Source: Ischnura elegans
Taxonomy: Eukaryota > Arthropoda > Insecta > Odonata > Coenagrionidae
Assembly: GCF_921293095.1 (NCBI RefSeq)
Contig: NC_060257.1
Span: 94,679,818-94,743,817 of the forward strand
Reading direction: 5' to 3'
Length of the DNA stretch: 64,000 bases
The notes under the pieces are model-generated. The model ran no database searches. It was not told where the DNA came from and was given only the letters and a program-made list of their open reading frames with translations. A program made the translations under genes and the position numbers. Positions 26,642 through 64,000 of the stretch are shown in pieces (position 1 is the stretch's first letter; the number at the start of each line of letters is the position of its first letter).

Positions 26642-26666
26642 GTGGTGACCCCGACAACACGCGACC

Positions 26667-27638
26667 ATGGCAGATGTAGATCAACTCGCCAAACTGCAGG
26701 CTCAAATCGCGGGACTCCAGCAGCAACTCGCCGAACACCAAACGAACCACAGCCAACAGCTAGCGCTCCTTCAAGAACAGCACCAGCAGGCTCTGCAGCA
26801 ACAACAGCAGCAAACAACGCTGTCATCGCAGCAAGCCTCACCGTCTCCATCATCCTACGGCGTCGACACTGCTGCCGTCTACCGCGTCACTCCGAAACTG
26901 CCTCCTTTCTGGCCAGCTCAGCCTGAAATATGGTTCGCCCAAGTCGAAGCACAATTTTCTTTGGCCAACATCACCTCGGACAAGACTAAATACGATTACG
27001 TCGTGGGAAACCTAGACCATCGTTTTGCCAGTGAAATAAGCGATCTTATCGTGAATCCTCCGGCCGAGAATCGTTACCTAACGCTGAAAAACCTATTGAT
27101 ACAGCGCGTCTCTCCCTCCGAGGATCAACGGGTGCGGCAACTCCTCACAGCAGAAGAGCTCGGTGATACCAAGCCTTCGCAACTATTACGACGCATGCGG
27201 TCTCTCATCAGCACCACCCTTGTGGAGGATTCTTTCCTCCGCACATTATGGTTGCAACGTCTTCCGGCCAACGCTCAAGCCATCCTGCAAACGCAAGTTA
27301 CTTCAATGCCTCTTGATGAACTTGCAAATATGGCCGACCGCATCGTCGCCGTGGCTCCGCCTCCAACTGCACCCGCCATCCATGCAGTACGCCATACCAA
27401 CGATGTTTCGTCATTGGCCCAACGGGTTGAGAAACTCTCAAAGCAGCTCGAAGATATACAAGCTCATCTGAAAAAACCTCCGTACTCACGGACTTGGAGC
27501 AGATCTCTACCCGCGCCGCGCCCCGCTCAGCCTGAGATGTGTTACTACCATCGCAAATTTGGAGCCGAAGCCAGACGTTGCATCCAGCCATGCACCGCAA
27601 ATGCAGTGAATCCGGTAAACTCCAACAGCGACTCGTAA
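26667..27638 (+). CDS. gag: Gypsy Gag polyprotein
   Basis: This 323-residue frame is the structural protein of the Gypsy element and forms the virus-like particle around its RNA. The first 55 residues are a Gln-rich coiled-coil-like stretch. A capsid-type region follows (PPFWPAQPEIWFAQVEAQF, then QLLTAEELGDTKPSQLLRRM), the hallmark of CsRn1/arthropod Gypsy Gag. Near the C-terminus CYYHRKFGAEARRC resembles a single degenerate zinc knuckle. The start ATG lies 12 bp after the primer binding site. The stop overlaps pol by 100 nt. The frame is open and shows no damage. Confidence 0.9.
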   Translation: MADVDQLAKLQAQIAGLQQQLAEHQTNHSQQLALLQEQHQQALQQQQQQTTLSSQQASPSPSSYGVDTAAVYRVTPKLPPFWPAQPEIWFAQVEAQFSLANITSDKTKYDYVVGNLDHRFASEISDLIVNPPAENRYLTLKNLLIQRVSPSEDQRVRQLLTAEELGDTKPSQLLRRMRSLISTTLVEDSFLRTLWLQRLPANAQAILQTQVTSMPLDELANMADRIVAVAPPPTAPAIHAVRHTNDVSSLAQRVEKLSKQLEDIQAHLKKPPYSRTWSRSLPAPRPAQPEMCYYHRKFGAEARRCIQPCTANAVNPVNSNSDS

Positions 27639-30600: not shown

Positions 30601-30724
30601 TCTTCTTGAGGAGGACCCTCCGCCTACTCCGTCACCAGATACCACCACTCGCTCCGGCCGCGCCGTCCGTCCTCCAGAACGTTTTGTTGCCAACACTCTG
30701 TCTCTCCTCCAAGGGGGGGAGTAG
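27539..30724 (+). CDS. pol: Gypsy Pol polyprotein (protease, RT, RNase H, integrase)
   Basis: The frame is -1 relative to gag and overlaps it, so Pol is probably made by -1 frameshifting; the first residues before the protease may not be translated as drawn. Domains in order: aspartic protease with LVDTGSDLSIYP (DTG at 60-62); RT with YIDD at 358-361; RNase H (VVDASRTAIGAVLQQ, DHKPLSYAF); integrase zinc-binding region (HSLSHPGANSTIK, CLSCQRC); and the DDE core (MDIVGPLP, CDHGRQF, NGLVERLHR). It ends at a stop directly abutting the 3' LTR. All catalytic motifs are present over 1,061 residues, so the element may be active. Confidence 0.95.
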   Translation: MLLPSQIWSRSQTLHPAMHRKCSESGKLQQRLVTAAMSRSITGCRLFVTDRLSQRRFLVDTGSDLSIYPVKLCTEQRTCTDYELSAANDSRIRTYGTLLLRLQFGLPRDFLWRFIVADVTEPIIGADFLTHFQLIPNMATAQLIDAITGHSTSGHRGRTYQDSVRALSGSSSYHDLLAEFPDITRPSGTPREIHHHTKHHIRLQPGPPIYHRARRLAPDRLRDAQAEFELLVREGTARRSHSPYASPLHMVRKKDSSWRPCGDYRALNARTIPDRYPVRHLKDFSHALQGCNIFSVIDCAKAFTQIPMAPEDIEKTAIITPFSLFEFLFMPFGLRNAAQTWQRFIDEALEGLNFCFPYIDDILVFSRSQEEHHQHLRILFQRLSDYGVIVNSAKCVLGSSKVTFLGFHVSADGCSPLPDKVAAINNFPPPKTIKDLRRFLGMLNFYRQHIPHAASTQAPLNALLQGPDIRSSTPIIWTPELQQSFDASKGGLAKAATLSHPIDSAPLALVVDASRTAIGAVLQQNFGNSWQSLGFFSRKLTPSQQKWSTYDRELYAAYQAVRHFRPMVEARDFAIFTDHKPLSYAFGPSKKSSDTCSPRQFNHLEFISQFTTDVRHISGLDNIVADCLSRVESISTPSPIDFAALSRSQDEDEELQRLRHSGTALQLHRRPVPGTNISLWCDTSMPTPRPYVTPSYRRQIFDNIHSLSHPGANSTIKLVSRRYVWPSMRKDCRAWARSCLSCQRCKVSRHITTPLGDFVPPTRRFEHIHMDIVGPLPSCSGYRYLLTIIDRFSRWPVAEPLADITADSVSRAFLLGWVAHYGCPQHITCDHGRQFVSSLFQRLCTTLGTTLHHTTSYHPQANGLVERLHRVLKAALMCSSSNSWMDALPTVLLGLRTTWRADLQTTPAELLFGEQLRLPGDFFVDPAQHLDSQDLVSQLRNHISQLRPTPASRHISSQRVFIHKDLATSSQVFVRQDALRPALQPPYAGPYPVLSRGEKTYTLYINGKPATISIDRLKPAHLLEEDPPPTPSPDTTTRSGRAVRPPERFVANTLSLLQGGE

Positions 30725-37719: not shown

Positions 37720-38880
37720 AATAGGGTGGTTTCGTATTATTTTTTTATTGCCTAAATCGAAAGATTGTTACTCCTGGAGTATGTATTTCATGCCTGTAGA
37801 TTTTTAATGACGATATCTATTTTTCACGATTACATGAAAAGTGAAAATTTTCAAGTGTGTGAAAACGCGACGGCTAAGTATGAATGCTGGGAAAACCCTG
37901 TGTGACTTCATTCTGGTTCCCGCTGCCGCCGTGTGAGGTGACCTTGGGGCGAGGCTTTGAGCGCTGATACGATGCAGGCTGCTAGCAGGTAGCGCTTGGC
38001 TTAAATAAGGATTATTAATACCCTATCAAACGAAGGAAACTTTCCGACCATAGGCAGTTTTAATATGTAGTTGATTATTAAGACATGTTTCCCTGAGCTC
38101 TGTGCCTCATGCATGCATTGGTAATCTCAGACGATGTAAAACTCCTATCTACTTGTATAGAAAGTAGGTCCATGTGACATCACGTGGAGTGGCATCGCAT
38201 GGGCACCAATCTGGACTTTTTCAAATGTGGTTAAAATTGTCCATTGCCATTCGTCTAAACTGAGATTTCTTAAACCAAATAATTTGTATATTATGAATAC
38301 ACTAATGGTGGGTAACGAATTGCAAGCAATGCCTTTTGTTTTCTTTGACGAAGGATACTACCCTATTAAAATATATGCTTCTCACGAATTGTGAACCCTG
38401 TATGTGGTGCTCGTACAGTTTCATTCAATGATAGTAATTTACTGCTATATATTACTCACTTGGTATCCTAGCTGCCCAGAGTATATGAGATGAGGAGGCA
38501 GCTCCTACAACTTAGGCTAACCTGGCAGCGTTTATTACTCTCCCACTGGAGTGATACATCACCTTGAAGACAGTGGCTGATTTTTATGGGTAGTGTGTTT
38601 TTAGTTGTTATTCCCATGTTCTGCCACTTTGAAAAATCAGAAAAAATTCAGTGTTAGGAGATGCATTGGCACACACATGGTGATCTGAAAAATTTTGATA
38701 CCTATAAAATTTAAGGAATGGTGATTACTCAAAAGCTTTCAAAAAATTTAATAATGAACATAGAATCATAATCATAACATAAAGTTATCCTGTTAAGTCA
38801 TTTGGAATCACAGTGTGCTCAAATCTTTTATTTGCATGATAGTTCAGAAACGCAGGTGAATGTAGCAGGACTACAAATAA
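37720..38880. other. Intron sequence upstream of the long exon
   Basis: I see no gene or recognisable repeat here. The last 25 bp form the pyrimidine-rich acceptor of the exon at 38906. Confidence 0.5.
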
Positions 38881-38905
38881 AAAAAAACTTATTCTCATTG
38901 ACCAG

Positions 38906-40833
38906 GTGGATTTGCTGAGTATTCCATCCATGTCTGGTGTATCTCCTTCCAATGACTTCAGACTTGCTCCATCGAGTGTCTTGAAGGCTGACAGCTCCAT
39001 TGCCTGTCCTATGACCTCTGTGAGATCAATGGTACCATTCCCAAATGGTTCTACCCCACAGGCTCTAAGCTCAGGAGAAAGTCTATTGGTTTGGAATGTG
39101 AATGGTCCGAGGAAAACCAACAGAGGAAATGATATTATTGGATCTCCGAAAAGAAGAGGTGTACAGAAGTCTAAAAAGGGCAATACAACATCAAGCAACC
39201 CTCTAGCATGTGAAAAGGTGAACCCTAAAGTGGCCATACCACGGTTGAAGGCTCCATGCTCGCAACTTGTGGGTAAGGCTATTTTGAAACAGTCTGAAAA
39301 AGTCGTGAAACCTATGCCAAACATTCTACAGACTCTTCCGGCTAGCATTAACTCTCCGATTACAGTTCTGAACGGAACCCAATTGGTTTCAACCACCCCA
39401 GCAGTTGGTTTCCTGGATGAGGATAATATTAGATTGGTTCAGGCAGCAGCTTCAGCCAAGATTGGTGTTCCGATTACAGTTTTGCAACCACCTCTGACTG
39501 CACCAACCTTGTCTTTGGTTGGTTCCGTTATGCAGGGGATAGGGAATGGCCATTTGGTCCCAGCTCATCTACCGGTGGGTGCAGTATGGCCTGGTGGACT
39601 ATTCTTCTACCCTTCCTGTTCTCAGTTAGTCAGTCATGTGGTCCATGTGAATCAAATGCAGAACACTGTGTTGTCAGCTGTTTCACCTGTCAAAGTTAAA
39701 CAAACTGAAAGTGTTGGACATAAAAATTCTCGTCAAACCAAAGGTAATATTGATGTAAAACAAAATGTGATGTCTTGTGCCATATCTCCTCGCAAAGGTG
39801 GACCTTCTGGAAATGTTAAACAGAGCATTTTCATGCCGTCTAACATAACATCACCCCAGTCTTCAAATTTGAGTGGATTATCCTCAGCACTTAAATCAAT
39901 TCTCAAACCAGACAGTGGAGACATCAAATTGACAGGTCTGAAAGAAAGTGGTGACGTGAAGGAAACTCCAAAGAATACTGTGAGCTTTGACATTTCCCTT
40001 CCTGAAAGTGCACTTAATAAAACTGCGGAACAGAAAGATTTGGGACAAGGGGGTATGGTATCACTTATGCCTTCAAACTTGAGAGTAGACTCAGCCCAAG
40101 TTGGAGAATCTACAAATGTACAACTGAAGGATTTGTTACTAGATGGTAAGGATTCCCATTTGTCTTTAAATTCGAGAGTAGATGCTGCCAAAGTAGGACA
40201 GTCTGGAAGTGCACTACAGAAAGATTTGCAACTAACCAATAATGTGTCTTCAATTTCCGAAGGGGATGCTGCCAAAATTGGAGAATCTACGAATGTACAG
40301 CAGAAAAGTTTACTGCTAGCAGATAAGGTATCCTTTGTGTCTTTAAATTCAAGAAAAGATGCTGCCGAAGTTGAAGAACTTAGAATTTTGTCGCAGAAAG
40401 ATTCTCTTAAAGCCAATGAGATACCCCCCTCATCTTCACCCATGAATGTGGACCCAGAAATCAAATCACTCGTGGAATACCTTGTGAGCACAAATGGTCC
40501 AGGCGTCAAGGTGACGGATCAAAAAGGACAGCAATTATCGTCTAGTGCCTCATTGTCATCATCACCAGTTAAGGTAGTGATTAATCCCCCCCTGACAATG
40601 GCGGAAGCCAAGACACTCATATCCATGGGAGGTGGTGCGACAAGTCCGTTGCCCAGTTTGGTAATATACAAGGTGCCAATGGGTGGGAAGGTGGTGGGGT
40701 GTGAGCAGGGGTCGAATGGGCGGCACCCGGTTGGTTACCTCATCGGAGGAAGTGCCTTGAAAGTTGAGTCGATGGTTTGCAGTGAGGAAGCGAGCATTAG
40801 GGTGAGGAAGAGGAAAAATACTGCTGTGGGAAG
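38906..40833 (+). CDS. Long exon of the zinc-finger host gene (exon C)
   Basis: A 643-codon open stretch begins right after the acceptor attctcattgaccag, with first codon GTG (Val) in phase 0, and ends at aag before gtgagc at 40834, in phase 2. It is Ser, Val, Pro and Lys rich, with no enzyme domain. Residues about 390-505 contain four imperfect copies of a ~32-residue repeat with cores such as RVDSAQVGESTNVQ, RVDAAKVGQSGSAL and GDAAKIGESTNVQ. The last codon is completed by the first base of the exon at 42246 (AG|G, Arg), giving a continuous frame into zinc fingers. Undamaged length and splice context argue for a real nuclear protein, perhaps a transcription regulator. I do not recognise the gene. 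Confidence 0.75.
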
Positions 40834-42245
40834 GTGAGCACGTCTACTCGAGAGTCCATTGTTTGAGCAAAAATCATTTGCGCAAACATTCTTGCTCTCA
40901 CCCATTTTATTTTTTCCTTTCGGTCATATTAAACTCAAATATGAAATTTTATCTCAAACACTGGTCGCTAACCTGTCCTGAACTGAATAGCAATTTAAAA
41001 TGGTTTTTTTTTTTAACCTTTAATCAGGGTAAACGTCAGAAATTAACAACATCTAGCATAGTTTAAATGAAATAAACTGACCTTGTTCATAGTAAAGATG
41101 ATGTGTGAGGCAGATACATTATTAATCAATTTTTCCATTTTGTGAAATTGTTGCTTTTCCTTGACTCTGACAATGTCACCATGGAATCTGATTTTGTACC
41201 TTGTTTTGGTGTCCTTCGGTGGGTTGCCTTTGTACTGCAGTTTCGGTCTATCGTGCGTTAATCTTGGCAGTTAGCTATTACAGTAAAACCTCTATGCAGT
41301 AAACCTCTTTACACCATAAACCTCCATACTTCATACCACACCTATGGTGCCATCAGATTTACCTCTTTGTAGTGAACCTCTTTATCTCATAAAACCTCCA
41401 TACTTCATACCAAGGATACACCCCCAAGACGGCCTAACTACCTCTGCGTATTGTACCGGGACAACTAGAGACCATTAATGCAGCCACAATTACGTACTTG
41501 GAATGGCATTTTCAGCGATAAATGTTTCACGCTTATTATTTTTTTATACACGTTTAATATGCTGTAATATTCACGTTAACCATTAGTTTAGGCCATTTTG
41601 TTCCATATGAGAGCATACCTAACAGTAAATAAGAAAAAAGTTATCCAACTGTCCTAATCATTTAAAGTGACTGTTGAATTAAGAGAGATCACATCGTTTT
41701 CTCTCGAATTATGGCAAAAATCATGCGATAGCGCTCTCCTTCTGTTATCATTAAATAATAAATATGTATATGTTCTCTAAAGCATGCATGTTTATTTAAA
41801 TTCATAAATATAATGGCATAAAAGAGAGTAGTGCCTTTCATTTCCAAAGGATATGAAAAAATGGTGCCTATCACTAAAACCTCTCTACAGTGAACCTCCA
41901 TATATCAAATTGCCTGAATTTTGGTCCCCTCCGTTACGATGTAAAGAGGTTTTACTGTAGTTTTTATTGATTTTATCTCATAAATTAAGGCCAAATGGAT
42001 GCTTGAGCAAACATGGGTCTTCCTATCTCTCAACATTTCATTTCATATCACATTGTGTATAGTTTGAACACTTTGTGGTCGTGACACCTTCCCTTGTCAG
42101 CTCAGTTGAGTTTTTTCGCATTCCCTACCCATATACATACCTTTGATGCTTACTTTGTGCCAGAAGATCAACCACCAATATGTATACATAAGTCAATGTT
42201 GTTTACTCGGAATGTTAGAAATGTATTGCACTGTTATCGCTGCAG
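40834..42245 (+). other. Intron between the long exon and the zinc-finger exon
   Basis: The interval runs from donor gtgagc to acceptor tgttatcgctgcag. It contains the pogo-like MITE at 41281-41957 and otherwise plain AT-rich sequence. Confidence 0.65.
41281..41957. mobile_element. pogo/Tigger-like MITE, 677 bp
   Basis: The left end is cagtaaaacctctatg and the right end is taaagaggttttactg, with TA at 41279-41280 and 41958-41959. Subterminal copies of aacctctttac and aacctccata recur inside both ends. No transposase is present. Confidence 0.8.
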
Positions 42246-53424: not shown

Positions 53425-54837
53425 TTACTCCAACTTAATTATGCCCATTTCTTTGGCAAACAATAATGTCTTAGGTCCAGACAAACTCTTTGTCAAACAG
53501 TCTGCAATGTTACTATCAGATTTCACATATTTCAATGAAATCTCTCCCTCCTTCACCTGAATTAAGGATGCAATTTCATTTTTGAACACACCTACTTCTT
53601 CCTTCTCACCTATAAACAAGAAATCATCAACATATGTTCCAACAATTACATTGCTCCTTAAGTACACACAAGGGTCACTGATACATTTCACAAACCCTAA
53701 CTCCACCAAAATCTTACTGAGAAACTCATACCAATTTCTCCCTGACTGTTTTAAACCATAAAGGCTCTTCTTCAACCTACAAACAAAATAATCTCTGTTT
53801 ACGTCCATCCCTTCAGGAACAGACATATATATGGTCTCATCCAGCTTGCTATTTAAATAAGCCCCCACCACGTCTAGGTGATCTATTTCCCAATTATTTT
53901 CCACAGCAATATAGGCTAACAGACGAACTGATTTCCTTTCAACAACTGGACTGGAAGTGTCATGATAATTCACACCGTATGTTTGAGTAAAACCCTGAGC
54001 CACAAGTCTTGCCTTAAATCTTACAATGTTACCTTCGTTATTCCTTTTAAGAGCAAAAACCCATTTACAGCCCACTACTTTCATATCCGGTAGTCTTCTC
54101 ACGATGTCCCAGGTCTCTTGGCCTTCGATGTTCCGTAATTCTTCTTCAATGGCTAACCTCCAGTTGTCGGCTTGAGATCCTTCTATGGCTTGGCGGTAAC
54201 TGGTTGGGACATCATCTTTTCCAAGGACAGAACGGGTGACGTTGCAGCATTCACACGGTCCTTTGGGCACCCGCTGCCGATTTGACCTCCTCAGGACTTG
54301 AGGATTTTCCTGTTCTTGTTCCTCATTCTGGACCTGGGCCTCTATTTCTGCATTTTCCTCTCCTGGCCTCTAGGCTATGGCTTGTAGCATATGTGTCGGG
54401 AGGGCTGCATCAACTTCTTCTTCTTCACTCGATGTGTCTTCTGTCTGGTCGCCTTTCCCACTGTTTACCTTTCTATGGAATGGGAACACAGTCTCATTGA
54501 ATATGACATCTCGACTAATAATGACTTTCCTTGTATTGAGGTCCCACAATCTGTAGCCTTTGGTGCCCTCTGGGTACCCCAGCATCACTGCTTCCTTTGC
54601 TCTGGCATCTAGCTTGTCACCATGGACTACTTGATACCAAGCCTGACAACCAAACACCCTTAGGTACTGAAAATCCTTCTCTTCAAGTTCTCTTCCAAGC
54701 CACCTCTTTAGTGGAATTTCAGAATCTATTGCTGTTGATGGACAATGATTTCTTAAATGACATGCGGTTTTTAGGGCCTCAGCCCAAAAATGTTTTGGCA
54801 AGTAGGGTGAAAAAAAGCGCCCTGGAGCACCTGCCAT
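53425..54837 (-). pseudogene. Copia Pol remnant (integrase end, RT, truncated RNase H)
   Basis: The upstream frame (54837-54370) holds the integrase C-terminal half, with LPKHFWAEALKTACHLRNHC and a LRVFGCQAW block. The downstream frame (54270-53425) holds RT with GCKWVFALKRN, ARLVAQGFTQ and the catalytic YVDDFLFIG. Then the sequence skips nearly all of RNase H to ISLKYVKSDSNIADCLTK. A frame break lies near 54300-54370. Protease, Gag and the 5' LTR are gone, replaced at 54840 by the virus-like block. The copy is dead. Confidence 0.85.
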
Positions 54838-54929
54838 TTTTAATTACCTCCCCCTTACACTTAATTACGCTCCGCCATCTTTAATTACGCTATCACGTGA
54901 CTTTTTAATCGACCGTCACTTGTTTTATT

Positions 54930-55600
54930 GATCGTCATTTGTTTCCCTTTCATCTTCTTTATCGTTATTCACCTATTTCTATTTTCTCTGACATAATTTA
55001 CTTTTACGCTTCTCATTTTGTTTTCTCTCGTCGTTTGTTTTACCAATAGCAAATGATTTTCGATCGTCATTTGTTTCCCTTTCATCTTCTTTATCGTTAT
55101 TCACCTATTTCTATTTTCTCTGACGTAATTTACCTTTACGCTTCTCATTTTGTTTTCTCTCGTCGTTTGTTTTACCAATAGCAAATGATTTTCGATCGTC
55201 ATTTGTTTCCCTTTCATCTTCTTTATCGATATTCACCTATTTCTATTTTCTCTGACGTAATTTACCTTTACGCTTCTCATTTGTTTTCTCTCGTCGTTTG
55301 TTTTACCAATAGCAAATGATTTTCGATCGTCATTTGTTTCCCTTTCATCTTCTTTATCGATATTCACCTATTTCTATTTTCTCTGACGTAATTTACTTTT
55401 TACGCTTCTCATTTTGTTTTCTCTCGTCGTTTGTTTTACCAATAGCAAATGATTTTCGATCGTCATTTGTTTCCCTTTCGTTTTCTTTATCGTTATTCAC
55501 CTATTTCTATTTTCTCTGACGTAATTTACTTTTTACGCTTCTCATTTGTTTTCTCTCGTCGTTTGTTTTTCCTAATATAAGATTTTCGATCGTCATCTTC
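54930..55600. repeat. Tandem repeat, five units of about 132 bp
   Basis: Unit starts at gatcgtcattt occur at 54930, 55062, 55194, 55325 and 55458, with a partial sixth at 55588. Units are T-rich and differ by a few bases and 1-3-bp indels. A degraded start occurs at about 54911. They lie at the left edge of the virus-like block. Confidence 0.9.
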
Positions 55601-55767
55601 TTTTCCCAAGCTGCTTCCCACACTCCAACCCCGCCAACCTCTCCCTCCCCCTTAACCGCTGGATGTTCTGGGTTCGATAGGAAATAATTCGACAAATGAA
55701 AGGCAAAGAGGTGGTAGATATTTTTTTTTTATTGTATGTATGCATGTTTACAAACATTTTATAAATT

Positions 55768-57381
55768 TCAATTATCGATAATATTATCCATTCGGGAAAC
55801 TATAGTTTTCAAGTCATTTGCTATGCTCGATAAATCTGAAGGGTAATTCTTGGGACATGGGATACCAAAGAGATTGAGATCATTTCTTCCAGCCCTCACC
55901 ATAGTGTTATTAAATTCACTGTATTCGTAAACATCTTTCTCTCTAAAAAAGTAGAGGATCCCATTGGTATGTCTAAATGCAGATTGTATACCTGTAGGTA
56001 TCTGTGGCATTAATTTTATGTGACGAGCTTGACTCTTCGGTCTAAAAGTGCACTCATCCATTTCAACAATGAATTCCCCACTATGAAATATTAGTGTGCG
56101 GGCAGAGTATGTATTAACAATTGCTTGAATTCTAGCGTTTCTAGGAAGGCCGGCGGATATAATATTCATAGGACGACCTTCAACTAGCTCCATTGTTGGA
56201 TAATTAACCATGTATATCAGGCCCTTGATAAATATTACAATTTCTCCACTAGGCCTGCGATAAAGAGCATCAAAACCATTGAAATCTTGCTCAGGTAAAA
56301 ATGGTAACCAATCTGTGATAAGCTGAGGGCCAACGATGTCTATTCTTTCAGTCACTTCCATATCCACATACCAAAACCATTTTTCATGAAATAAATACAG
56401 CAAATTATTGATTATGAGTAACTGGCGTACATTATCAAGTTCACACAAAGTCGGACGGTGAGTATTATTTTTTGCAACATTCGGTTCTGCTCTGAATCTA
56501 TCCTCCGGATATTCAGGTGCTCCCTCAGCATCATCATCGTTCCCCTGAACTGGATCATCTTCCTTCTGAGGTTCCAAGGGTGGTCCATAGAGAAATTGAG
56601 CTGCTAGTATATCATCTTCATGTAGTGTCAGACGGTAATTATAATGGTTATAATACGCAAACATCAGAGAATTCTCATAATTCGAATGTGTAATTCCTAG
56701 AGTGTGACCAATTTCATGGAGAAGAACGGCGAGCAAACTGACTTGAAATTCAGGAAGTTCAGGATGATCCATTCCTAAGTACCACATTTCATCTTGATCG
56801 ATGTGAATTTCAAGTGGAATATCTCGACTTGATGGTAATTGCGCATGAGCTAATTTTCCACCAATCCCATCCAAAGGCGTAGAACAAAAATGTCTATTTA
56901 AATATTGTTTATGATTGTACCGTGTATTCATTATGAAGATATCCGGATGTTTAGGATCATGCTCGAACTTTAAATTAGCTGCCTGACTCCATATTTCAAA
57001 CGCTTTCCGAGCTAATTCCATGTACGTCGAGTTCACAAATCCATAGTGCCATTTTATTATATCTTTATTCCATTTGTAATGGTATACAGAAAACGCAGGA
57101 TCATCAACAACTCCGCAGCGTGGTCTATTGGTTAAATTCAGAGTCATTTCATTCAATTCCCCATCTTTTGTAATGTTATAGTATTCTTGAAAAATTTCCA
57201 AAGCCTCTTTCAATTCCGTATGGTCAATGCTAGTAATTTCATTTTCGGTCACGTTCAAATATCCATACTGTCGAAGATATTCTGCTACGCAATACGTTTT
57301 ATTGGTGTGGGTATTTTCACTGGATAACACCTTTTGTACAGCAAGCTCAGTTAAGAGCAAAAAGATATAGACTGCTCTCAT
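55768..57381 (-). CDS. Secreted matrix metalloproteinase with hemopexin domain
   Basis: The 537-residue product begins with a signal peptide (VYIFLLLTELA, residues 4-14). A prodomain follows, with the cysteine switch PRCGVVDDP (Cys89, canonical PRCGVPD). The zinc catalytic motif HEIGHTLGITH is at 222-232 with the Met-turn SLMFAYY (Met240). A linker rich in Asp/Glu/Pro follows, then a hemopexin-like domain from about 330 to 515. All catalytic residues are present. It would degrade extracellular matrix proteins outside the cell. The gene is a single uninterrupted frame, whereas insect host MMP genes have introns, and it lies 74 bp after the polymerase in the same direction. A TATA-like site (tataaat) lies about 50 bp upstream. 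Baculoviruses and ascoviruses are known to carry MMPs; capture from a host is my inference. Confidence 0.9.
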   Translation of the reverse strand: MRAVYIFLLLTELAVQKVLSSENTHTNKTYCVAEYLRQYGYLNVTENEITSIDHTELKEALEIFQEYYNITKDGELNEMTLNLTNRPRCGVVDDPAFSVYHYKWNKDIIKWHYGFVNSTYMELARKAFEIWSQAANLKFEHDPKHPDIFIMNTRYNHKQYLNRHFCSTPLDGIGGKLAHAQLPSSRDIPLEIHIDQDEMWYLGMDHPELPEFQVSLLAVLLHEIGHTLGITHSNYENSLMFAYYNHYNYRLTLHEDDILAAQFLYGPPLEPQKEDDPVQGNDDDAEGAPEYPEDRFRAEPNVAKNNTHRPTLCELDNVRQLLIINNLLYLFHEKWFWYVDMEVTERIDIVGPQLITDWLPFLPEQDFNGFDALYRRPSGEIVIFIKGLIYMVNYPTMELVEGRPMNIISAGLPRNARIQAIVNTYSARTLIFHSGEFIVEMDECTFRPKSQARHIKLMPQIPTGIQSAFRHTNGILYFFREKDVYEYSEFNNTMVRAGRNDLNLFGIPCPKNYPSDLSSIANDLKTIVSRMDNIIDN

Positions 57382-57455
57382 TTCAGTGTGAAGCGTAGCA
57401 CGTGAGGGAATGAAATGAGATTCACAATTTAATACGAACTGAATTTATACACTTT

Positions 57456-60400
57456 TCAACGATGAGGGAGGGGGAAGGCCTCATCATAAGTCCGTTTACG
57501 TGATTCTTCTCTTATCCTATAATCACCCCAGGCTAATGTCGTGATACCATCTCTACATATATAGCGTTTATCATCGTTTGCACTCAAGGCTACTTTATTT
57601 ATTTTTAGAGTGTACATTTCATGTTTATTAGATCGTAAAATGTACATCTGTCGATACTCTACGGAATTATCGAGTAAACACTTTTCGTAATGTTCGAAAT
57701 TAATAGATTTTCGAATGACGGGCTTGGCAATACCTTTAGCCTTCTTCACTTCTTTAGCATTTTCCATACGATAGGAGTAAAGTTTGCTTCTCAAGCCGAC
57801 AAAATTCGTCATAATGTCACCATTACATTCATCCTTCATCTTACCAACCACTTTTTTATTAAAATTTGAGAAACACTTGTGATCACAGGGATATGCAGAT
57901 GTATCGTACAGTTCTAAGTTTTCTTTCATGTCTTCGTATATGTCATTAGTCTCAACATCAATAATCATACCATCTGTATCCATTTGATTGAGCGATATCT
58001 TATTCCCATACTTCACTTTAAGGTGACCGTAAAAAAAATCGTACATTAGGGTTTTGCTTAGATCCAAAACTGCTTGTCCTGCATAAATTGGCTTCACCAT
58101 TTTAATCGTTGACATTCTACTGTGAACAGCCACCAAATTTTCAGAAAATATAGTTCTATCTAAAAATCTCGAACTGGAGATCAATTTATTCAGTCTTTTT
58201 TCGTTACACACCAATTCAAGGTCAATTCTTCTCCTTAAATTCTCCATCAGCTTACCAAATACACTATTTACCATAAGTTTGAAGAAATCCCTGTCAAAAT
58301 CATTTTTTGCCAACTTCCGTTTTTCGGTATTAATGTTTATGTAAGGATCTAACCATCTCGATTGATCAAACTCGATCACTCGTCGAATTCTATTCAGCTT
58401 CAGACCATATCTAAGGGCTTGTTTTAAATTAACATAATGAATTACATATTTTTCTTTTGGCTCAAGTGTTGTCAATAATTTTCTGAATTTACCAGTAGGA
58501 GGTATTTTATTTTCTGGACAAAATGGAAGATCCGAGTGAGTTTCATGTATATTATCGGGATAATCTAAATCAACCTCGAGAAAATATCCTTTAGGATTGT
58601 CATCTGAAATATTCAAATTAAACTCTCGAATTTCCTCTTCACTAAGCCATTTAAAACTACCACGAGGAAGAGGTTGAGACATTGCCCACCCATAGAGATT
58701 GTTAGCATCCAAATACAAAAGGTATCTATTAGGAATTGACGCATCATATTCCCTCATATATTTATTATTTGCCTTACTGTACCTCTTACAGCATTGACTA
58801 ATACCTCCTCGTATTCCATTTTCTGTCATCAGCAGCATATCGTAATCAGTCATCAACTCGAGAGTCACCCCTGTATGCTTTAACATAGCATCAAACGCTA
58901 ACCCCGGTGATGTATAATACCATGCAGGGTCAAGCTTATACGTTTCCATGCAAACATCCCGAAAATTTTCAAAAATATCGGATAAAATCGTAACATCTGT
59001 TTTCAGGTATAAGTCGGAGTATTCACCGAGAGTCTGGCAATTGAATTCAAACCAAATTTTTTGAGCAAATTCATAATCGTCATCGCTTACTGTTTCTCCA
59101 TTAATATGACTATAAAATTTCTCCTTCGGTGGTAAACATTTTTCCTCTAACTTTTCCCAACTGTCAACATATTCGTATGGAAAAATTCCTTTCCTCGTAA
59201 CAAGGTTCAACTTATCTCCATAAACTCGTTTTGTATGAATAAATTTCTCTCGGGGGAGATTGTCAGCTAATTTTGATAGGGTCGAAGCCATAAATCGAAA
59301 TGTATCCACAAATCTAATGCTGAAATTGTTACCGATACTTTTGCTAAAAGATATATACTTTTCCTCAGAATTCGCTATGCAATTAATTTCTTTATTATCG
59401 TAACCTAAATTTGGTACAATAAAATGAGCATCATATCCGCTTAGGTTATGAAAAAATACAGGGAGAAATTTGGGCATTTTAAACTTTAAATTACATTGTG
59501 AATGTAAAGCTGCTCTAAACTTTCCAGTCAAGTGACAATGATCTTGAACGCGATCAGCACCCAATTCTTCTCCACAAAGATGACAATACTTAGCGGATTC
59601 AAATGCCTGTTTTTCTTCTTGTGTTAACGCAATCATCTGTACCGTATTTTGATACATATTTTGTACTAGTTCGGCTACCTCTTTGATCCAATTCATAAAA
59701 ACTTTCGCAGCATCTCTCCCTCGATAAGAAATTGGTTCAAATTTTAGATTATTTGTACAAATAAGTAAAAAACAAAAAGACATTATTTCATGTTTTTCTA
59801 TTGCACACGTATAAGAATGCTCATCATTCGAGCAACAATGTTGAACCTTCGGAAGTATTGACTCAAAATCGGCTACAACTATGGCAGGGACACGCATTGC
59901 ACGACCAACATTTTTAAATTTCAACAATTTTTCATCATCTCCCGGCATAATTATTTTAGAAGGAGCATTTTTCATACAATCTAAACGATGTATTTCGAGT
60001 TTTTCATGCGTATGAAAATGACAGAAGCAGCGTTTGCAAACGTATATAGAATTATGATTTTTCGTAATTTGTGAATGAAGCAATTTATTAAACGATTTAA
60101 TCCAACAATAATGTGATTTATTTTCTTTAACTAGATAAAGTAAATCTCTATGATCAGATAGTTCTTCATCCACAACTTTTAAAGGATACACGTTATTTTT
60201 CTCATCTATACCGAAAACATTAATAGAAATATTATTTTTTATTTCAAATTTACTAATATCTCTCAAAATAACCGGATATTTAATGCAATTCCAATCATAC
60301 TTTGTTTCAAAATTTTTATCCTTAATATATTTTATAACTCTAGAGCATAAATATCTAGGTGCTGTTTCTGCCATGTATTTGGAATAAATCGCATATTTAA

Positions 60401-61316
60401 AGCAGTATATATCATTATTCTTAACATTTATTACTGATTTGGTATCATAAATTCTCTTTGGGAGTTCGATGAAAGTGGATCCGCCCAGAGGACGATATTT
60501 ATTTATTCGTAATTCTAAACCTGAAATTTCACGTAAAGTCCACCCTGATCCCTTTGCTTGATGTTCGGATTTTTCTTTTAGTAATTTAGCAAACAGATGC
60601 TCTACAATTTCATCTACATTGTCAGTCTCAAATATTCTAACATTTTCCGTTTTAAACCATCTTTCATCCGTAAGTTCCTCTTTAGAAAAATTACACTTGA
60701 CCAAAACATTGATTTTTACCGGAGAAGATTCCAATACATATTTAATTTTCTCAATGACCAGTAACCTGATATTATTCAGAAATGTGATTAAATCACTTCC
60801 CTCATCCAACCCACTAACCCAGTAAGTCTTTAATCTATTTTTCGCTGCCGATTGAACTTCAACCATTCCCTTTACATTTCCTGCTCCAACTTGTCGTAAA
60901 ACATGTCTTCTATGAACCTCACTACTCTCATGAGAGACTTTGTTACGAAAATATGTGTAACAAATTTCACATAGTTTATCTTCTATTGTATTAGCTCCAA
61001 CACTAACATGTCTTTGGTGTACTTCACTAGCTTCATGTGTAAGTCTATCTCTAAAATAAGTGTAACAAACTTCACAAAGTTTATCTTCTATCGCATTAGT
61101 TCCAACACTACCTTGTAAAACATGTCTTTGGTGTACCTCACTAGCTTCATGTGCAAGTCTATCTCTAAAATAAGTGTAACAAATTTCACAAAGTTTATAT
61201 TCTTCCGGATTAACTCCAACACTATTCTGTAAAACATGTCTTTGATGAACGTCACTAGCTTCATGAGCAAGTCTATCTCTAAAATAAGTGAAACAAATGT
61301 CACAAAAAGTGTCCAT
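57456..61316 (-). CDS. Protein-primed family B DNA polymerase with N-terminal zinc fingers
   Basis: The long open frame starts with GTG at 61373, but the first ATG is at 61316, giving about 1,286 residues; residue numbers here count from 61373. Four finger-like repeats at 22-47, 60-85, 98-123 and 133-160 share C..C and H...H.RH spacing, with a CKRC finger near 446. Exonuclease motifs: DFE (502-504), NLSGYD (643-648), YLKTD (789-793). A CHLCGE...DHCHLTG zinc cluster is at 597-616. Polymerase motifs: A at LDANNLYG (D889), B at KLMVNSVFGK (1032-1041), C at MDTDG (1131-1135). All catalytic residues are intact. Such enzymes copy linear DNA from a terminal protein in Polintons, adintoviruses and bidnaviruses. 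TATA at about 61399-61405. Confidence 0.92.
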   Translation of the reverse strand: MDTFCDICFTYFRDRLAHEASDVHQRHVLQNSVGVNPEEYKLCEICYTYFRDRLAHEASEVHQRHVLQGSVGTNAIEDKLCEVCYTYFRDRLTHEASEVHQRHVSVGANTIEDKLCEICYTYFRNKVSHESSEVHRRHVLRQVGAGNVKGMVEVQSAAKNRLKTYWVSGLDEGSDLITFLNNIRLLVIEKIKYVLESSPVKINVLVKCNFSKEELTDERWFKTENVRIFETDNVDEIVEHLFAKLLKEKSEHQAKGSGWTLREISGLELRINKYRPLGGSTFIELPKRIYDTKSVINVKNNDIYCFKYAIYSKYMAETAPRYLCSRVIKYIKDKNFETKYDWNCIKYPVILRDISKFEIKNNISINVFGIDEKNNVYPLKVVDEELSDHRDLLYLVKENKSHYCWIKSFNKLLHSQITKNHNSIYVCKRCFCHFHTHEKLEIHRLDCMKNAPSKIIMPGDDEKLLKFKNVGRAMRVPAIVVADFESILPKVQHCCSNDEHSYTCAIEKHEIMSFCFLLICTNNLKFEPISYRGRDAAKVFMNWIKEVAELVQNMYQNTVQMIALTQEEKQAFESAKYCHLCGEELGADRVQDHCHLTGKFRAALHSQCNLKFKMPKFLPVFFHNLSGYDAHFIVPNLGYDNKEINCIANSEEKYISFSKSIGNNFSIRFVDTFRFMASTLSKLADNLPREKFIHTKRVYGDKLNLVTRKGIFPYEYVDSWEKLEEKCLPPKEKFYSHINGETVSDDDYEFAQKIWFEFNCQTLGEYSDLYLKTDVTILSDIFENFRDVCMETYKLDPAWYYTSPGLAFDAMLKHTGVTLELMTDYDMLLMTENGIRGGISQCCKRYSKANNKYMREYDASIPNRYLLYLDANNLYGWAMSQPLPRGSFKWLSEEEIREFNLNISDDNPKGYFLEVDLDYPDNIHETHSDLPFCPENKIPPTGKFRKLLTTLEPKEKYVIHYVNLKQALRYGLKLNRIRRVIEFDQSRWLDPYININTEKRKLAKNDFDRDFFKLMVNSVFGKLMENLRRRIDLELVCNEKRLNKLISSSRFLDRTIFSENLVAVHSRMSTIKMVKPIYAGQAVLDLSKTLMYDFFYGHLKVKYGNKISLNQMDTDGMIIDVETNDIYEDMKENLELYDTSAYPCDHKCFSNFNKKVVGKMKDECNGDIMTNFVGLRSKLYSYRMENAKEVKKAKGIAKPVIRKSINFEHYEKCLLDNSVEYRQMYILRSNKHEMYTLKINKVALSANDDKRYICRDGITTLAWGDYRIREESRKRTYDEAFPLPHR

Positions 61317-61398
61317 GTTCTCAATGAATGTTATGTACACTGATGCTTCACAATACCTAATCTTCTTATTCACTGCTAGATAATAAGCTACTTACCGT

Positions 61399-61405
61399 TA
61401 TATAT
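61399..61405 (-). promoter_or_regulatory. TATA box for the polymerase gene
   Basis: On the minus strand, tatataa stands about 28 bp before a cagtg initiator-like site near 61375, and about 85 bp before the ATG at 61316. The spacing suits Pol II. Confidence 0.4.
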
Positions 61406-61656
61406 AAACCAGAGCTCCGACCAGCAGGACGTAACAAGCAGGAAACCGGGGAAAGTGTTTTCTATTTCTAATATTCTCTCAAGAAAAACTTATTCCTTCT
61501 CCAAATTATTTCTTTTATTTTAAAAAGGTTTTTTTTACAACACAGTGATGTGAATAATCTGTAATTAAAGAAAGATCAAAATTTAAGTAAATATAATTAA
61601 ACACAAAAACCTAATTTAAAAAACAAAATTAAATAATATTAAATCATAGATACCTT

Positions 61657-61953
61657 TTAATCTTCCAAGGACAAACGCTCTCCGTCCCAGGTGAGCGTGA
61701 GAGGCTCCCCCTCCCCCCGGTTCACAGCATCCACCGCTTCCCTGTTGAAAACCTTTAAGTATCTTTTAGGGAGGAAGAGCCTCCCTCGCTGACCAGCACC
61801 CTCAATCATTGCCGAAACCCCATCCCCATACCTAGTTTCAACCACCCATAGATATGTTATGGTATATCTAAAACCTACAACAAGGTTTTCTTTTTTTAGG
61901 AAGGGAGGGAGTTCCTTGTTCACCTTCTGAATTTTCCTTCTCAAGTTCTCCAT
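61657..61953 (-). CDS. Small conserved-looking protein, possible single-strand DNA binding (98 aa)
   Basis: The protein begins MENLRRKIQKVNKELPP and has the block RYGDGVSAMIEG followed by GRLFLPKRYLKVF. I have seen this T/R-YG...LP.RY layout in small proteins that accompany protein-primed polymerases in invertebrate elements. An OB-like ssDNA-binding role is inference from that memory. The ATG follows tttctttctag, a strong splice acceptor, and a donor gtaagt lies at 62044-62039 on the minus strand. The first exon would be a 5' leader, spliced by a 91-bp intron, from a TATA box near 62128. It precedes the polymerase in the same direction. Confidence 0.6.
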   Translation of the reverse strand: MENLRRKIQKVNKELPPFLKKENLVVGFRYTITYLWVVETRYGDGVSAMIEGAGQRGRLFLPKRYLKVFNREAVDAVNRGEGEPLTLTWDGERLSLED

Positions 61954-62044
61954 CTAGAAAGAAAATACATGTTAAGTATTAGGGAAATAATCGTATATAA
62001 CGTTAAATATATACATGTGAGGAAGAAAACTAAGCCCCACTTAC
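61954..62044 (-). other. Probable 91-bp leader intron
   Basis: On the minus strand the interval begins gtaagtgggg and ends tttctttctag, placed directly before the ATG of the 98-residue gene. Upstream of it is a short leader exon with a TATA box. Both splice sites are close to consensus. Confidence 0.55.
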
Positions 62045-62124
62045 TGCGTTCGGTTTTGGATCGCCTCTGGTGTACTCTACCGCCGATCGAATTGAAGTGG
62101 TGAATTTGGAGGAAGATGCGAGCT

Positions 62125-62132
62125 CTTATATA
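62125..62132 (-). promoter_or_regulatory. TATA box for the 98-residue gene
   Basis: On the minus strand tatataag lies about 85 bp upstream of the leader intron donor. The predicted start is near 62100. Confidence 0.5.
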
Positions 62133-62159
62133 CCTAAAAGAGGGGTAATACTTTCGAAT

Positions 62160-62387
62160 CACTTAGGGGGAAATAACTGGGAGTAGGTCGTAATCATCCA
62201 AGGAGAACTGCACTAAGTGAGAGGATGACCTTCCAGTACCGAAGCATGAAGCAAGAGGTCTGAAAATGTCCTTGAGAGCTGCACGTGGTATTTATCCTTT
62301 CATCATCACTGCGGTGAACCACTGAGGCGGATATGGTAATCACAAGATGAAACAGCATCAATCCAGAGTGTTGGAAATTCTCTCAAG
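62160..62387. other. Divergent intergenic region, left part
   Basis: There is no supportable gene here. The region lies between leftward and rightward gene sets and includes a cacgtg at 62282-62287. Confidence 0.5.
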
Positions 62388-62627
62388 GATTCCGCGTGAG
62401 AGGCCGACCTCGGCACGTGCGTGTCGATCAGCGGCTAAGTGGGTGGGGCAGCGCAGATTCCGCGTGAGAGGCCGACCTCGGCACGTGCATGTCGATCAGC
62501 GGCTAAGTGGGTGGGGCAGCGCAGATTCCGCGTGAGAGGCCGACCTCGGCACGTGCATGTCGATCAGCGGGGAAGTGGGTGGAGCAGCGCAGATTCCGCG
62601 TGAGAGGCCGACCTCGGCACGTGTGCG
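62388..62627. repeat. 68-bp GC-rich tandem repeat, 3.5 units
   Basis: Units begin at 62388, 62456, 62524 and 62592 with gattccgcgtgag and are nearly identical. Each includes cacgtg (62414, 62482, 62550, 62618) and the segment gtcgatcagcgg in the full units. The array sits between the divergent gene sets, the usual place for a shared promoter, enhancer or replication origin. Its GC content contrasts sharply with the AT-rich genes around it. Confidence 0.9.
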
Positions 62628-62790
62628 CTTAATAGCGGAGGAATTAGGGGATGATGTAATACCACTTGATATTCCAGAATTCCTATTCCCTATTTCCGGT
62701 ACCAACAGGTTCACTGGGGAAAACCTAAAATGGCGCCCTCGATGGTCTTTGAACCCCTTTACCCACCCTACTTGCGACACTATCCATATA

Positions 62791-62798
62791 TATATAAA
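62791..62798 (+). promoter_or_regulatory. TATA box for the rightward small gene
   Basis: A tatataaa box, preceded by further TA repeats, lies 27 bp before the ATG at 62825. The leader would be very short or start near the ATG. Confidence 0.5.
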
Positions 62799-62824
62799 TC
62801 GGGCGAAAATTCATTACAAAAATC

Positions 62825-63133
62825 ATGAACAGCCTTTTAGCACAGCCGGTGGGTTCTCTAACCCTTTGGAAAGAGATAGAGGAATTCATATTCAAATTAA
62901 AAGAAAAAGCAGACGAAGAATTTAAAAAAATCCTCCAAGAGGCGGAAATAAGTCCGGATCCGAGTGCTTTGCACAATGTCTGTGATCAATATGAAGCATT
63001 TTATGAGAGAGAAGTCTTTCAAAAATTAACTGAAGATTCGTTAAAGTCAACTATAATAGAAAGGCTGCGTTATTTAAACAAAGATAATTATAATTATTAC
63101 ATGAGAATTTACAACTGGTGTGATTATTACTAA
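62825..63133 (+). CDS. Small helical protein of unknown function (102 aa)
   Basis: The protein begins MNSLLAQPVGSLTLWKEIEE and is rich in Glu and Lys with hydrophobic spacing that suggests helices (FIFKLKEKADEEFKKIL). I do not recognise a family. It is open, follows a TATA box and precedes the dUTPase by about 200 bp in the same direction, so I list it as a probable gene of the virus-like element. A role in replication or packaging cannot be inferred. Confidence 0.5.
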   Translation: MNSLLAQPVGSLTLWKEIEEFIFKLKEKADEEFKKILQEAEISPDPSALHNVCDQYEAFYEREVFQKLTEDSLKSTIIERLRYLNKDNYNYYMRIYNWCDYY

Positions 63134-63330
63134 GCGATTAGTCACCATTATACACTCATATAGCGTCTCCCTGTTCACTCGCAGCACAAACGGCTTTGAT
63201 AGATTAAAAGACGCATTCCCTATCCTAACTCACACGCCGAAATCCAGTATCCGCCGCTATATACCTTGTTGGATATCTCAGGCAGGAGACCGAGCACAAC
63301 AAACGGCTGTTTAATTACCTATTAAGAAAT

Positions 63331-63774
63331 ATGAGTCAGCAAAGGAATTACAAACTTAAATATAAGAAACTTACAGAAAACGCGCGTGATTTATACAAGG
63401 GATCTACTAATGCTGCTGGTTTTGACCTTCGAAGCGCATATGACTACACCATTTCACCAGGAAGTCGTCTGTTAGTAAAAACAGATCTCCAAATTGAGCT
63501 GCCATGGGGGTGCTATGGGAGGATTGCCCCGAGATCTGGTCTGGCCTTAAAATATGGAATAGATATTTCAGGGGGAGTACTGGATTTCGATTTTCGCGGA
63601 AATGTGTCAATTATAATTTGTAATAATAGTAGCGTCGTCTTTAAAATAAATGCTGGTGACAGAATCGCACAATTAATTTGTGAACAAATATTAAATCCTG
63701 ATTTGGAAGAAGTGGATTATATGAATGAAACTGAGAGAGGATGTAAGGGATTCGGTTCGAGTGGAGAGAATTGA
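63331..63774 (+). CDS. dUTPase (trimeric type)
   Basis: The 147-residue product has all five motifs of trimeric dUTPase: motif 1 AAGFDLRSA (28-36), motif 2 PRSGLA (67-72), motif 3 GVLDFDFRGN (82-91), motif 4 GDRIAQLI (109-116) and motif 5 GCKGFGSSG (137-145). The enzyme hydrolyses dUTP to dUMP and pyrophosphate, keeping uracil out of DNA. Length is normal. Motif 3 has Phe where Tyr is usual (DYRG), a mild change. Large DNA viruses and some Polinton-like elements carry this gene, which fits the polymerase nearby. The start is preceded by AT-rich sequence; no damage is seen. Confidence 0.95.
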   Translation: MSQQRNYKLKYKKLTENARDLYKGSTNAAGFDLRSAYDYTISPGSRLLVKTDLQIELPWGCYGRIAPRSGLALKYGIDISGGVLDFDFRGNVSIIICNNSSVVFKINAGDRIAQLICEQILNPDLEEVDYMNETERGCKGFGSSGEN

Positions 63775-64000
63775 AAGAGTAACCTCTAATTGTATGAAAT
63801 TAAATTATTTGAATAATAATGTATAATATGATGTTTTTTAAAAATTAAAAAAATTATTTAAAAAAAATTTATCTCTACTTTTTTTTACCTAAAAAAAATC
63901 TTTCAACCATAGAGAATACTAATTAAGAGAAATATTAAAGAAATTGAGAAATATCTAGAATTTCCCCGTCTTCATTGAAAATGAACACTGTCCCGAACCC
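63775..64000. other. AT-rich tail after the dUTPase
   Basis: There is no coding sequence. A-rich runs and a poly-T tract near 63880 occur, and the window ends within the element. Confidence 0.5.

What the first reader, a model, noticed from the sequence alone, without database searches (positions are those of the whole stretch)
54841..64000. Undamaged virus-like gene block with protein-primed DNA polymerase, dUTPase and a matrix metalloproteinase
All five frames are open and catalytic motifs are complete, whereas the mobile elements beside it are broken. A protein-primed PolB plus dUTPase is viral in type, and an MMP next to them is a combination I do not know from described Polintons, adintoviruses or bidnaviruses. 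It may be an endogenous virus, or an assembly that joins a viral scaffold to host DNA.
Basis: partly seen in the sequence, partly recalled or inferred. Interest (0 to 1): 0.9.

Follow-up and report, generated by a model that had tools for sequence, protein, structure and literature searches.

The report
Virus-like jumping element carrying tissue-dissolving protease
The block is one end of a 20-kilobase virus-like mobile element (a Polinton/Maverick) that has recently spread through this genome, and every related lineage examined there also carries a matrix metalloproteinase gene beside its DNA polymerase, which hints that these elements may spread between cells or tissues as viruses do.

Summary
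The block is real and not an assembly join. It is the left 9.2 kb of a Polinton/Maverick-type endogenous virus; the contig ends at base 64000. The true left end is 54801, not 54841. Three other copies, read in separate pieces, are 20.0-20.2 kb and carry rve integrase with chromodomain, A32-like packaging ATPase, and proteins in the positions of capsid, core and protease. Nine of nine copies seen at both ends have perfect 6-bp target-site duplications. The metalloproteinase (MMP) is full length and open in 28 copies at 98-100% identity. It is no chance neighbour: 20 of 20 MMP loci at 69% identity or less have the polymerase directly upstream. Shared variants and one diverged copy show purifying selection (dN/dS about 0.2-0.4). 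MMP is thus a long-held gene of a Polinton clade; most likely it is secreted and opens basement membrane for spread, as proposed for betabaculovirus MMPs (inferred). A satellite-like family of about 13-15 kb uses the same ends. Not settled: polymerase, protease and capsid folds (no library match), MMP ancestry, host, expression, occurrence in other species.

The parts
53425..54800 (-). broken copia-type element (pol fragments) into which the element is inserted
   Evidence: ORFs; copia assignment by reading the sequence (recalled motifs), not by a library
54795..54800 (.). presumed left target-site duplication (TTGGCA); right partner lies beyond the contig end
   Evidence: 9 of 9 other copies seen at both ends have perfect 6-bp duplications in this position
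54801..55600 (.). left terminal repeat: 5'-AGTAGGGT terminus followed by about five 132-bp tandem units
55768..57381 (-). matrix metalloproteinase: signal-like N terminus (by eye), propeptide with PRCGV switch, catalytic domain HEIGHTLGITH, hemopexin-like C terminus; 537 aa, single exon
57456..61316 (-). [quoted passage not shown]
   Evidence: endonuclease VII; polymerase assigned from invariant motifs in alignment A2, names recalled; not recognised by Pfam or PDB
60900..61346 (-). four tandem repeats (spacing 105-114 nt) encoding an array of C/H zinc-finger-like units at the polymerase N terminus
   Evidence: family D2; weak zf-DBF match
61657..61953 (-). 98-aa protein, possible OB-fold single-strand DNA-binding protein (weak lead)
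   Evidence: model pLDDT 55.6; no hit at E<=0.001
62388..62623 (.). G+C-rich tandem repeat with 68-bp period between the two divergent gene blocks
   Evidence: family D3
62798..63133 (+). protein of unknown function (111 aa from stop to stop, 102 aa from ATG at 62825), conserved in related elements
   Evidence: 63-90% identical in L064-L067, in one or two segments
63331..63774 (+). dUTPase, 147 aa
   Evidence: (PF00692 E=1.2e-40)
63935..64000 (-). 3' end of a 173-aa ORF whose remainder lies beyond the contig end (seen in other copies)
   Evidence: position read from the sequence

Best explanation
This is the left part of one copy of a recently active Polinton/Maverick (eupolintovirid-like) endogenous virus of about 20 kb that carries its own matrix metalloproteinase. 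Shown: inverted termini, perfect 6-bp target-site duplications in other copies, integrase with chromodomain, A32-like ATPase, dUTPase, full-length MMP, many near-identical copies, and the same polymerase-MMP pair in several diverged lineages. Inferred from motifs and gene position: protein-primed PolB, major and minor capsid proteins, core protein, maturation protease. Inferred function: the polymerase copies the linear genome from its protein-capped ends, the integrase inserts it with a 6-bp duplication, capsids can form, and the MMP is secreted as a zymogen and cut active to loosen basement membrane so that particles or infected cells reach other tissues, possibly the germ line.
For: Termini and 6-bp duplications in 9 of 9 copies seen at both ends (in a tenth pair, C9:21.79M, only one end was found). 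Three copies of 20,119, 20,033 and 20,170 bp (coordinates); rve (45.0 bits, cut-off 32.6), Chromo (34.0, cut-off 25.1) and Pox_A32 (25.3, cut-off 22.8) in L013; eight proteins full length without stops in L012 and L014 relative to L013, and three in L016 and L018 relative to L017. 21 near-full copies (97-100%, window included) of the dUTPase end, 33 of 33 candidates scored. MMP full length and stop-free in 28 of 28 copies at 98-100% and in 8 of 10 at 84-91% (81 of 231 candidates scored, so lower bounds). 26 of 26 full-length MMP genes among 40 loci read are open. Selection: variants shared by two or more copies 8.5 synonymous to 6.5 nonsynonymous, against 6.5 to 17.5 for single-copy variants (p about 0.001-0.005 and 0.61 on rounded counts); the diverged copy L060 has dS 0.161, dN 0.059, p=1.8e-6. 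PolB directly upstream of MMP in 20 of 20 loci at 69% MMP identity or less; PolB 55-63% and MMP 34-46% identical to the window's in the three read with both genes. MMP present in every betabaculovirus sequenced at the time and thought to help spread: passages of PMC4192325.
Against: No library or solved structure recognises the polymerase, the capsid candidates, the core-like protein or the protease (as far as each was searched there); their identities rest on recalled resemblance, motifs and gene position. The OTU-like domain of adintovirus PolB could not be tested (model pLDDT 36). No particle, transcript or enzyme activity is shown. The copy that gave L060 has only the C-terminal 212 residues of its polymerase in the piece read, so it is itself a deletion derivative. 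The MMP and PolB best trees differ, although PolB does not reject the MMP tree (AU p=0.35; four taxa only). The origin of the MMP (host or another virus) was not testable. Only one genome was examined.
Confidence: 0.82

Rival explanations
1. A passive gene-capturing transposon: the element moves only inside the genome and the MMP is hitch-hiking host cargo with no role for the element.
For: Copies are clearly genomic insertions and shorter derivatives have lost viral genes. Single-copy MMP variants look neutral.
Against: The PolB-MMP pair persists in lineages whose MMPs are only 37-46% alike; 16 of the 20 loci at 69% or less have a near-full-length stop-free MMP, one has a stop and three are partial or split. 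Shared variants and a diverged copy show purifying selection. Useless cargo should decay over that divergence.
Confidence: 0.12
2. The MMP serves the virion itself or host defence rather than tissue spread, for instance by trimming capsid or fusion proteins or blunting immunity and melanisation.
For: A BmNPV expressing the XecnGV MMP gives a distinct melanisation pattern in larvae (passage of PMC4192325). The element already has a candidate maturation protease, so a second protease could have a new target.
Against: The MMP keeps a signal-like N terminus, the propeptide switch and a hemopexin domain, as extracellular MMPs do, which fits an extracellular substrate better than an intracellular virion one.
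Confidence: 0.2
3. Assembly artefact joining a viral contig to host DNA.
For: The contig ends inside the element.
Against: The same left terminus joins different flanks in other copies, with 6-bp duplications in 9 of 9 copies seen at both ends.
Confidence: 0.01
4. Bidnavirus or other polymerase-carrying parvovirus relative.
For: Bidnaviruses carry a related PolB (passages of PMC11071296 and PMC11071308).
Against: The element is 20 kb of integrating DNA with rve integrase and A32-like ATPase; no parvovirus NS1 or VP family matched among the ORFs scanned.
Confidence: 0.01

Closest known systems
Polintons/Mavericks (class Polintoviricetes)
   Same: About 20 kb, inverted termini, 6-bp duplications, rve integrase with chromodomain, packaging ATPase, and polymerase, protease and capsid candidates in a fitting arrangement
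   Different: An MMP gene beside the polymerase in every MMP-bearing lineage examined here; zinc-finger-like array at the polymerase N terminus; no library recognises the polymerase or capsid candidates
Adintoviridae, renamed Eupolintoviridae in 2025 (PMC12451622, passages)
   Same: Midsize linear DNA virus of animals with integrase carrying a C-terminal chromodomain (definition: PMC11071296, passages); basic core-like protein (likeness recalled)
   Different: OTU-like PolB domain and hexon similarity could not be tested; no paper listed or 140 shows adintovirus together with MMP, metalloproteinase or hemopexin (15 of 35 and 15 of 16 listed)
Betabaculovirus (granulovirus) MMP
   Same: A DNA virus carrying its own MMP, thought to help spread; passages of PMC4192325
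   Different: A large baculovirus, not an integrating Polinton; kinship of the present gene to granulovirus MMP is untested
Bidnaviruses
   Same: Carry a Polinton-derived PolB (PMC11071308, passage)
   Different: Parvovirus NS1 and capsid, single-stranded genome; none matched here

Membership tests
Polinton/Maverick | terminal inverted repeats and 6-bp target-site duplications (the 6-bp length as a hallmark is recalled) | tested here: met
   9 of 9 copies seen at both ends (three full-length, six shorter); a tenth pair and the window copy seen at one end only. Repeats of full-length copies are short: 178-195 bp at 95-97% plus 210 bp at 81%
Polinton/Maverick | length about 15-25 kb | tested here: met
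   20,119, 20,033 and 20,170 bp from coordinates; range from PMC6431247 section 10
Polinton/Maverick | retrovirus-like (rve) integrase | tested here: met
   PF00665 45.0 bits (cut-off 32.6), PF00385 chromodomain 34.0 (cut-off 25.1)
Polinton/Maverick | genome-packaging ATPase | tested here: met
   PF04665 Pox_A32 25.3 bits (cut-off 22.8)
[quoted passage not shown]
   invariant DANNLYG, K...N.V.GK and MDTD motifs (meaning recalled), but no polymerase model or structure matched
Polinton/Maverick | adenovirus-like cysteine protease | tested here: inconclusive
   189-aa ORF after the capsid candidate with adenain-like residues by eye; no Pfam match up to E=0.01, Peptidase_C48 only at E=0.15 for a fragment
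Polinton/Maverick | double jelly-roll major capsid and single jelly-roll minor capsid proteins | tested here: inconclusive
Adintoviridae/Eupolintoviridae | PolB with N-terminal OTU-like domain | tested here: inconclusive
   single-sequence model of polymerase residues 150-445, pLDDT 36.3
Adintoviridae/Eupolintoviridae | hexon and PolB recognisable by BLASTp against reference members | not testable with these tools
   The search for homologous proteins switched off; viral-contig scans found no relative of PolB or the capsid candidate
Adintoviridae/Eupolintoviridae | integrase with C-terminal chromodomain | tested here: met
   definition from PMC11071296 passages
Bidnaviridae | parvovirus NS1 helicase and capsid protein | tested here: not met
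   no such match among the ORFs scanned with Pfam
Matrix metalloproteinase (M10A) | propeptide cysteine switch, HExxHxxGxxH zinc site, hemopexin domain | tested here: met
   Peptidase_M10 and Hemopexin above cut-off in the window MMP and in L072-L074; PRCG and HEIGHxLGxxH invariant in the four aligned

The most novel reading that the evidence does not exclude
A whole clade of Polintons has kept a secreted matrix metalloproteinase as a standing viral gene, meaning that these 'transposons' are, or very recently were, infectious viruses that cross tissue barriers in their animal host, and that they support a satellite family which borrows their ends.
Probability: 0.45. Interest if true: 0.87.

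Novelty: new variant of a known kind. Interest (0 to 1): 0.74.

Why it matters
Whether Polintons make infectious particles is an open question: the abstract of PMC7805220 (2021; [quoted passage not shown] A matrix protease of secreted type kept by selection in several Polinton lineages makes most sense if something happens outside the cell, so it turns that question into tests on one genome: is the MMP expressed and secreted together with the capsid genes, and is the 20-kb DNA found in particles? It would also be a second case, beside granuloviruses, of an animal DNA virus group keeping its own MMP.

Tried and rejected
Assembly artefact: rejected. Bidnavirus relative: rejected (no NS1 or VP match). 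MMP as a one-off neighbour or a recent single capture: rejected. MMP in the terminal repeat of all copies: my first reading of the inverted pairs; not so for the three full-length copies, true for the shorter derivatives. Viral-contig scans with single PolB, capsid candidate and MMP, and with alignments of MMP (A1) and PolB (A2), found no relative. Structure prediction of the 98-aa protein (pLDDT 55.6) and of a polymerase N-terminal piece (pLDDT 36.3) was too weak; fold searches of the former gave nothing at E<=0.001, though baculovirus LEF-3, PrgE and phage ssDNA-binding proteins appear in the lists. PolB and MMP trees of four sequences: PolB does not resolve the tree, MMP prefers one of the other two arrangements. 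A genome-wide polymerase search and a Peptidase_M10 family search (to find the host's own MMPs) could not be run because the tool stayed busy. Host identity was not established.
Full report
What was checked. The window is C12:94679818-94743817 of a 1.72-Gb assembly of 110 contigs, and contig C12 ends exactly at window base 64000, so the copy in the window is cut by the assembly. Pfam names the first and last beyond doubt: Peptidase_M10 1.8e-28, Hemopexin 2.1e-10, PG_binding_1 4.5e-6, dUTPase 1.2e-40; the MMP also matches MMPs of the PDB (best E 7.3e-26).

The polymerase caveat. No library calls the 1286-aa protein a polymerase. It matches only endonuclease VII above cut-off (Pfam 24.3 bits, cut-off 23.6; PHROGs E 1.1e-7). 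PDB searches with the whole protein or with a four-lineage profile give nothing, and Pfam up to E=10 names no polymerase for the C-terminal 681 aa of the window protein or the three related pieces. I read it as a protein-primed family B polymerase because the invariant columns of alignment A2 include DANNLYG, K...N.V.GK and MDTD in the usual order; the meaning of these motifs, and the likeness of the whole protein to arthropod Polinton polymerases, are recalled. Its N terminus carries four repeats, spaced 105-114 nt, encoding zinc-finger-like units.

True boundary. Aligning seven other loci (L002-L008) to the window shows that homology stops at 54797-54801 in all of them, with unrelated flanks. 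All 22 termini found (window copy included) begin AGTAGGGT.

It inserts like a Polinton. In nine of nine copies for which both ends were read, the six bases outside the left end repeat exactly outside the right end: GGTACC, CATAAT, AAGGAC, TACCTA, GTTGGT, AATGGT, AATGGC, AAAGGG, GTATAT. In a tenth fetched pair (C9:21.79M) only one terminus was found. The window copy is preceded by TTGGCA; its other end is not in the assembly. That Polintons make 6-bp duplications and have AG termini is recalled.

The rest of the element, seen in pieces of other copies. Three copies measure 20,119, 20,033 and 20,170 bp (from coordinates). Beyond the window they encode a 173-aa ORF (-), then on the other strand proteins of 174, 253, 212, 112, 355, 494 and 233 aa and a basic protein, then 447, 189 and 324 aa and a further overlapping 263-aa frame. 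The 494-aa protein has rve and Chromo domains and the 212-aa protein is Pox_A32-like, all above Pfam cut-offs. The 447-aa protein (major capsid), 233-aa protein (minor capsid, one gene upstream of it as PMC4028283 describes for Polintons, passages), the basic protein (core) and the 189-aa protein (adenain-like protease) are assigned by position and recalled resemblance only; Pfam gives nothing for them, and the PDB, searched for the two capsid candidates, only chance-level hits. Eight proteins are full length and stop-free in L012 and L014 (relative to L013) and three in L016 and L018 (relative to L017); the shorter C3 copy has a broken protease and only 82-89% identity in the 355-aa protein, integrase and 324-aa protein. 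The polymerase of these three full-length copies was not fetched. Right ends of the three share 178-195 bp at 95-97% plus a 210-bp stretch at 81% with their left ends.

Copy number and age. The dUTPase end occurs in 21 near-full copies at 97-100% (window included) and in more distant ones at 72-83%; all 33 candidates were scored. The MMP protein search scored 81 of 231 candidates, so counts are lower bounds: 28 full-length copies at 98-100%, 28 of 28 without stops, and 10 at 84-91%, 8 of 10 without stops. I read 40 loci (L001-L008 and 32 more); 26 hold a full-length MMP, 26 of 26 are open, and several are identical. The family is young and probably still active or very recently so.

The MMP is a kept gene. 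Among 25 equal-length MMP genes, variants in two or more copies are 8.5 synonymous to 6.5 nonsynonymous (dN/dS about 0.2 by arithmetic from the site counts), while single-copy variants are 6.5 to 17.5, as expected without selection (p about 0.001-0.005 and 0.61 on rounded counts). A diverged copy (L060, 92% identical DNA) has dS 0.161 and dN 0.059 (p=1.8e-6). These are simple counts without correction for mutation bias, and the copy that holds L060 shows only polymerase residues 1075-1286 in the piece read, so it is a deletion derivative. The switch and zinc site are kept in L060.

The pairing is old. One search also showed single-exon MMPs at 69%, 46% (11 copies), 48% and 38-39% identity, and three partial or split ones at 46-51%. 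I read three of these loci with their upstream DNA (L072-L074): each has a polymerase 63, 58 or 55% identical to the window's, followed on the same strand by an MMP 44, 46 or 34% identical, with Peptidase_M10 and Hemopexin above cut-off. I then fetched 1.0-1.6 kb upstream of the other 17 loci at 69% or less: 17 of 17 hold the polymerase C terminus. So 20 of 20 are polymerase-linked; 16 of the 20 have a near-full-length stop-free MMP, one has a stop, three are partial or split. The 84-91% copies were checked only in part: the polymerase lies beside the MMP in L068, and by coordinates in L064, L066 and L067. One lineage has a 245-aa ORF between the two genes, and in L074 the polymerase is interrupted by a stop. 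The PolB data do not reject the MMP tree (AU p=0.35), but the best trees differ; with four sequences this neither proves nor excludes exchange. Gene order from polymerase to ATPase is kept in L066 and, as far as read, in L065 and L067; in L073 the ATPase start follows the MMP directly, so order changes in deeper lineages.

How it most likely works. Shown: an integrating element with the terminal signature of a Polinton and a selected, complete MMP. Inferred: protein-primed replication from the ends, encapsidation, and secretion of the MMP, which after propeptide cleavage would open basement membrane. The parallel is the betabaculovirus MMP, present in every betabaculovirus sequenced when PMC4192325 was written and thought to help spread (passages); PMC11865517 (abstract start, passages) describes the basal lamina as a barrier that insect viruses must cross. 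A purely intracellular transposon would seem to gain nothing from a secreted matrix protease, so selection on it argues for an extracellular stage; that is inference, not a demonstration. Rivals are a role in immunity or virion processing, and useless cargo.

A satellite-like family. Elements of 14,638, 14,642, 15,432 and 12,816 bp (C4:74.71M, C2:8.04M, C2:107.28M, C19:19.05M; coordinates) share the termini and 6-bp duplications, have at both ends the last 709 nt of the MMP gene inside a terminal repeat of about 1.7 kb, show no match to the 16 element proteins other than the MMP in the interior pieces read and are 99.6-99.98% identical to each other there. They look like non-autonomous passengers of the full element. 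Their interiors were read only in part.

Known or new. By termini, duplications, length, integrase and ATPase it belongs with Polintons; the polymerase, protease and capsid criteria are inconclusive with the tools here. Adintoviridae was renamed Eupolintoviridae in 2025 (passages of PMC12451622); membership there could not be settled. Literature, open-licence PMC papers only, seen as listings: adintovirus/endonuclease VII/metalloproteinase, at least two terms, 35 papers, 15 listed, none of the 15 with 'adintovirus'; polinton + matrix metalloproteinase, 0; polinton + metalloprotease, 4, none on an MMP in Polintons to judge by titles; Maverick + matrix metalloproteinase + transposon, 1, an oyster genome paper not opened; adintovir + metallo, 2, one of them due to a parvovirus genus name, the other, PMC9554406, not opened; Polinton/adintovirus terms with MMP or hemopexin, 16 papers, 15 listed, none of the 15 with MMP or hemopexin. 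The main adintovirus paper and the 2024 Polinton review are not held. So I found no report of an MMP in such an element, within these limits; hence 'new variant of a known kind'.

Limits.

Noticed in passing
L010, L069, L070, L071; C4:74707836-74722473, C2:8038158-8052799, C2:107276433-107291864, C19:19048023-19060838: Non-autonomous, satellite-like derivatives of about 13-15 kb with terminal repeats of about 1.7 kb holding an MMP gene fragment, perfect 6-bp duplications and a shared interior in which no element protein other than the MMP matched; L070 has an internal inversion relative to the others.
   Followed up: partly
window 26649-30724: Gypsy-like retroelement (named by eye) with open gag-like (329 aa) and pol-like (1062 aa) frames.
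   Followed up: no
window 38843-40837: 664-aa open frame with internal repeats, possibly a large host exon (assignment not tested).
   Followed up: no
L072:2132-2869 and relatives (L075-L084, L088, L090): A 245-aa ORF of unknown function lies between polymerase and MMP in one Polinton lineage (98-100% in most copies, 73% in L090, 49% in L083).
   Followed up: partly
window 61657-61953: 98-aa protein with predicted beta-rich, OB-like secondary structure; weak fold matches to baculovirus LEF-3 and other ssDNA-binding proteins.
   Followed up: partly
window 57969-57983 (reverse strand, polymerase motif C): The window polymerase reads MDTDG where L072, L073 and L074 read MDTDS; effect unknown.
   Followed up: no
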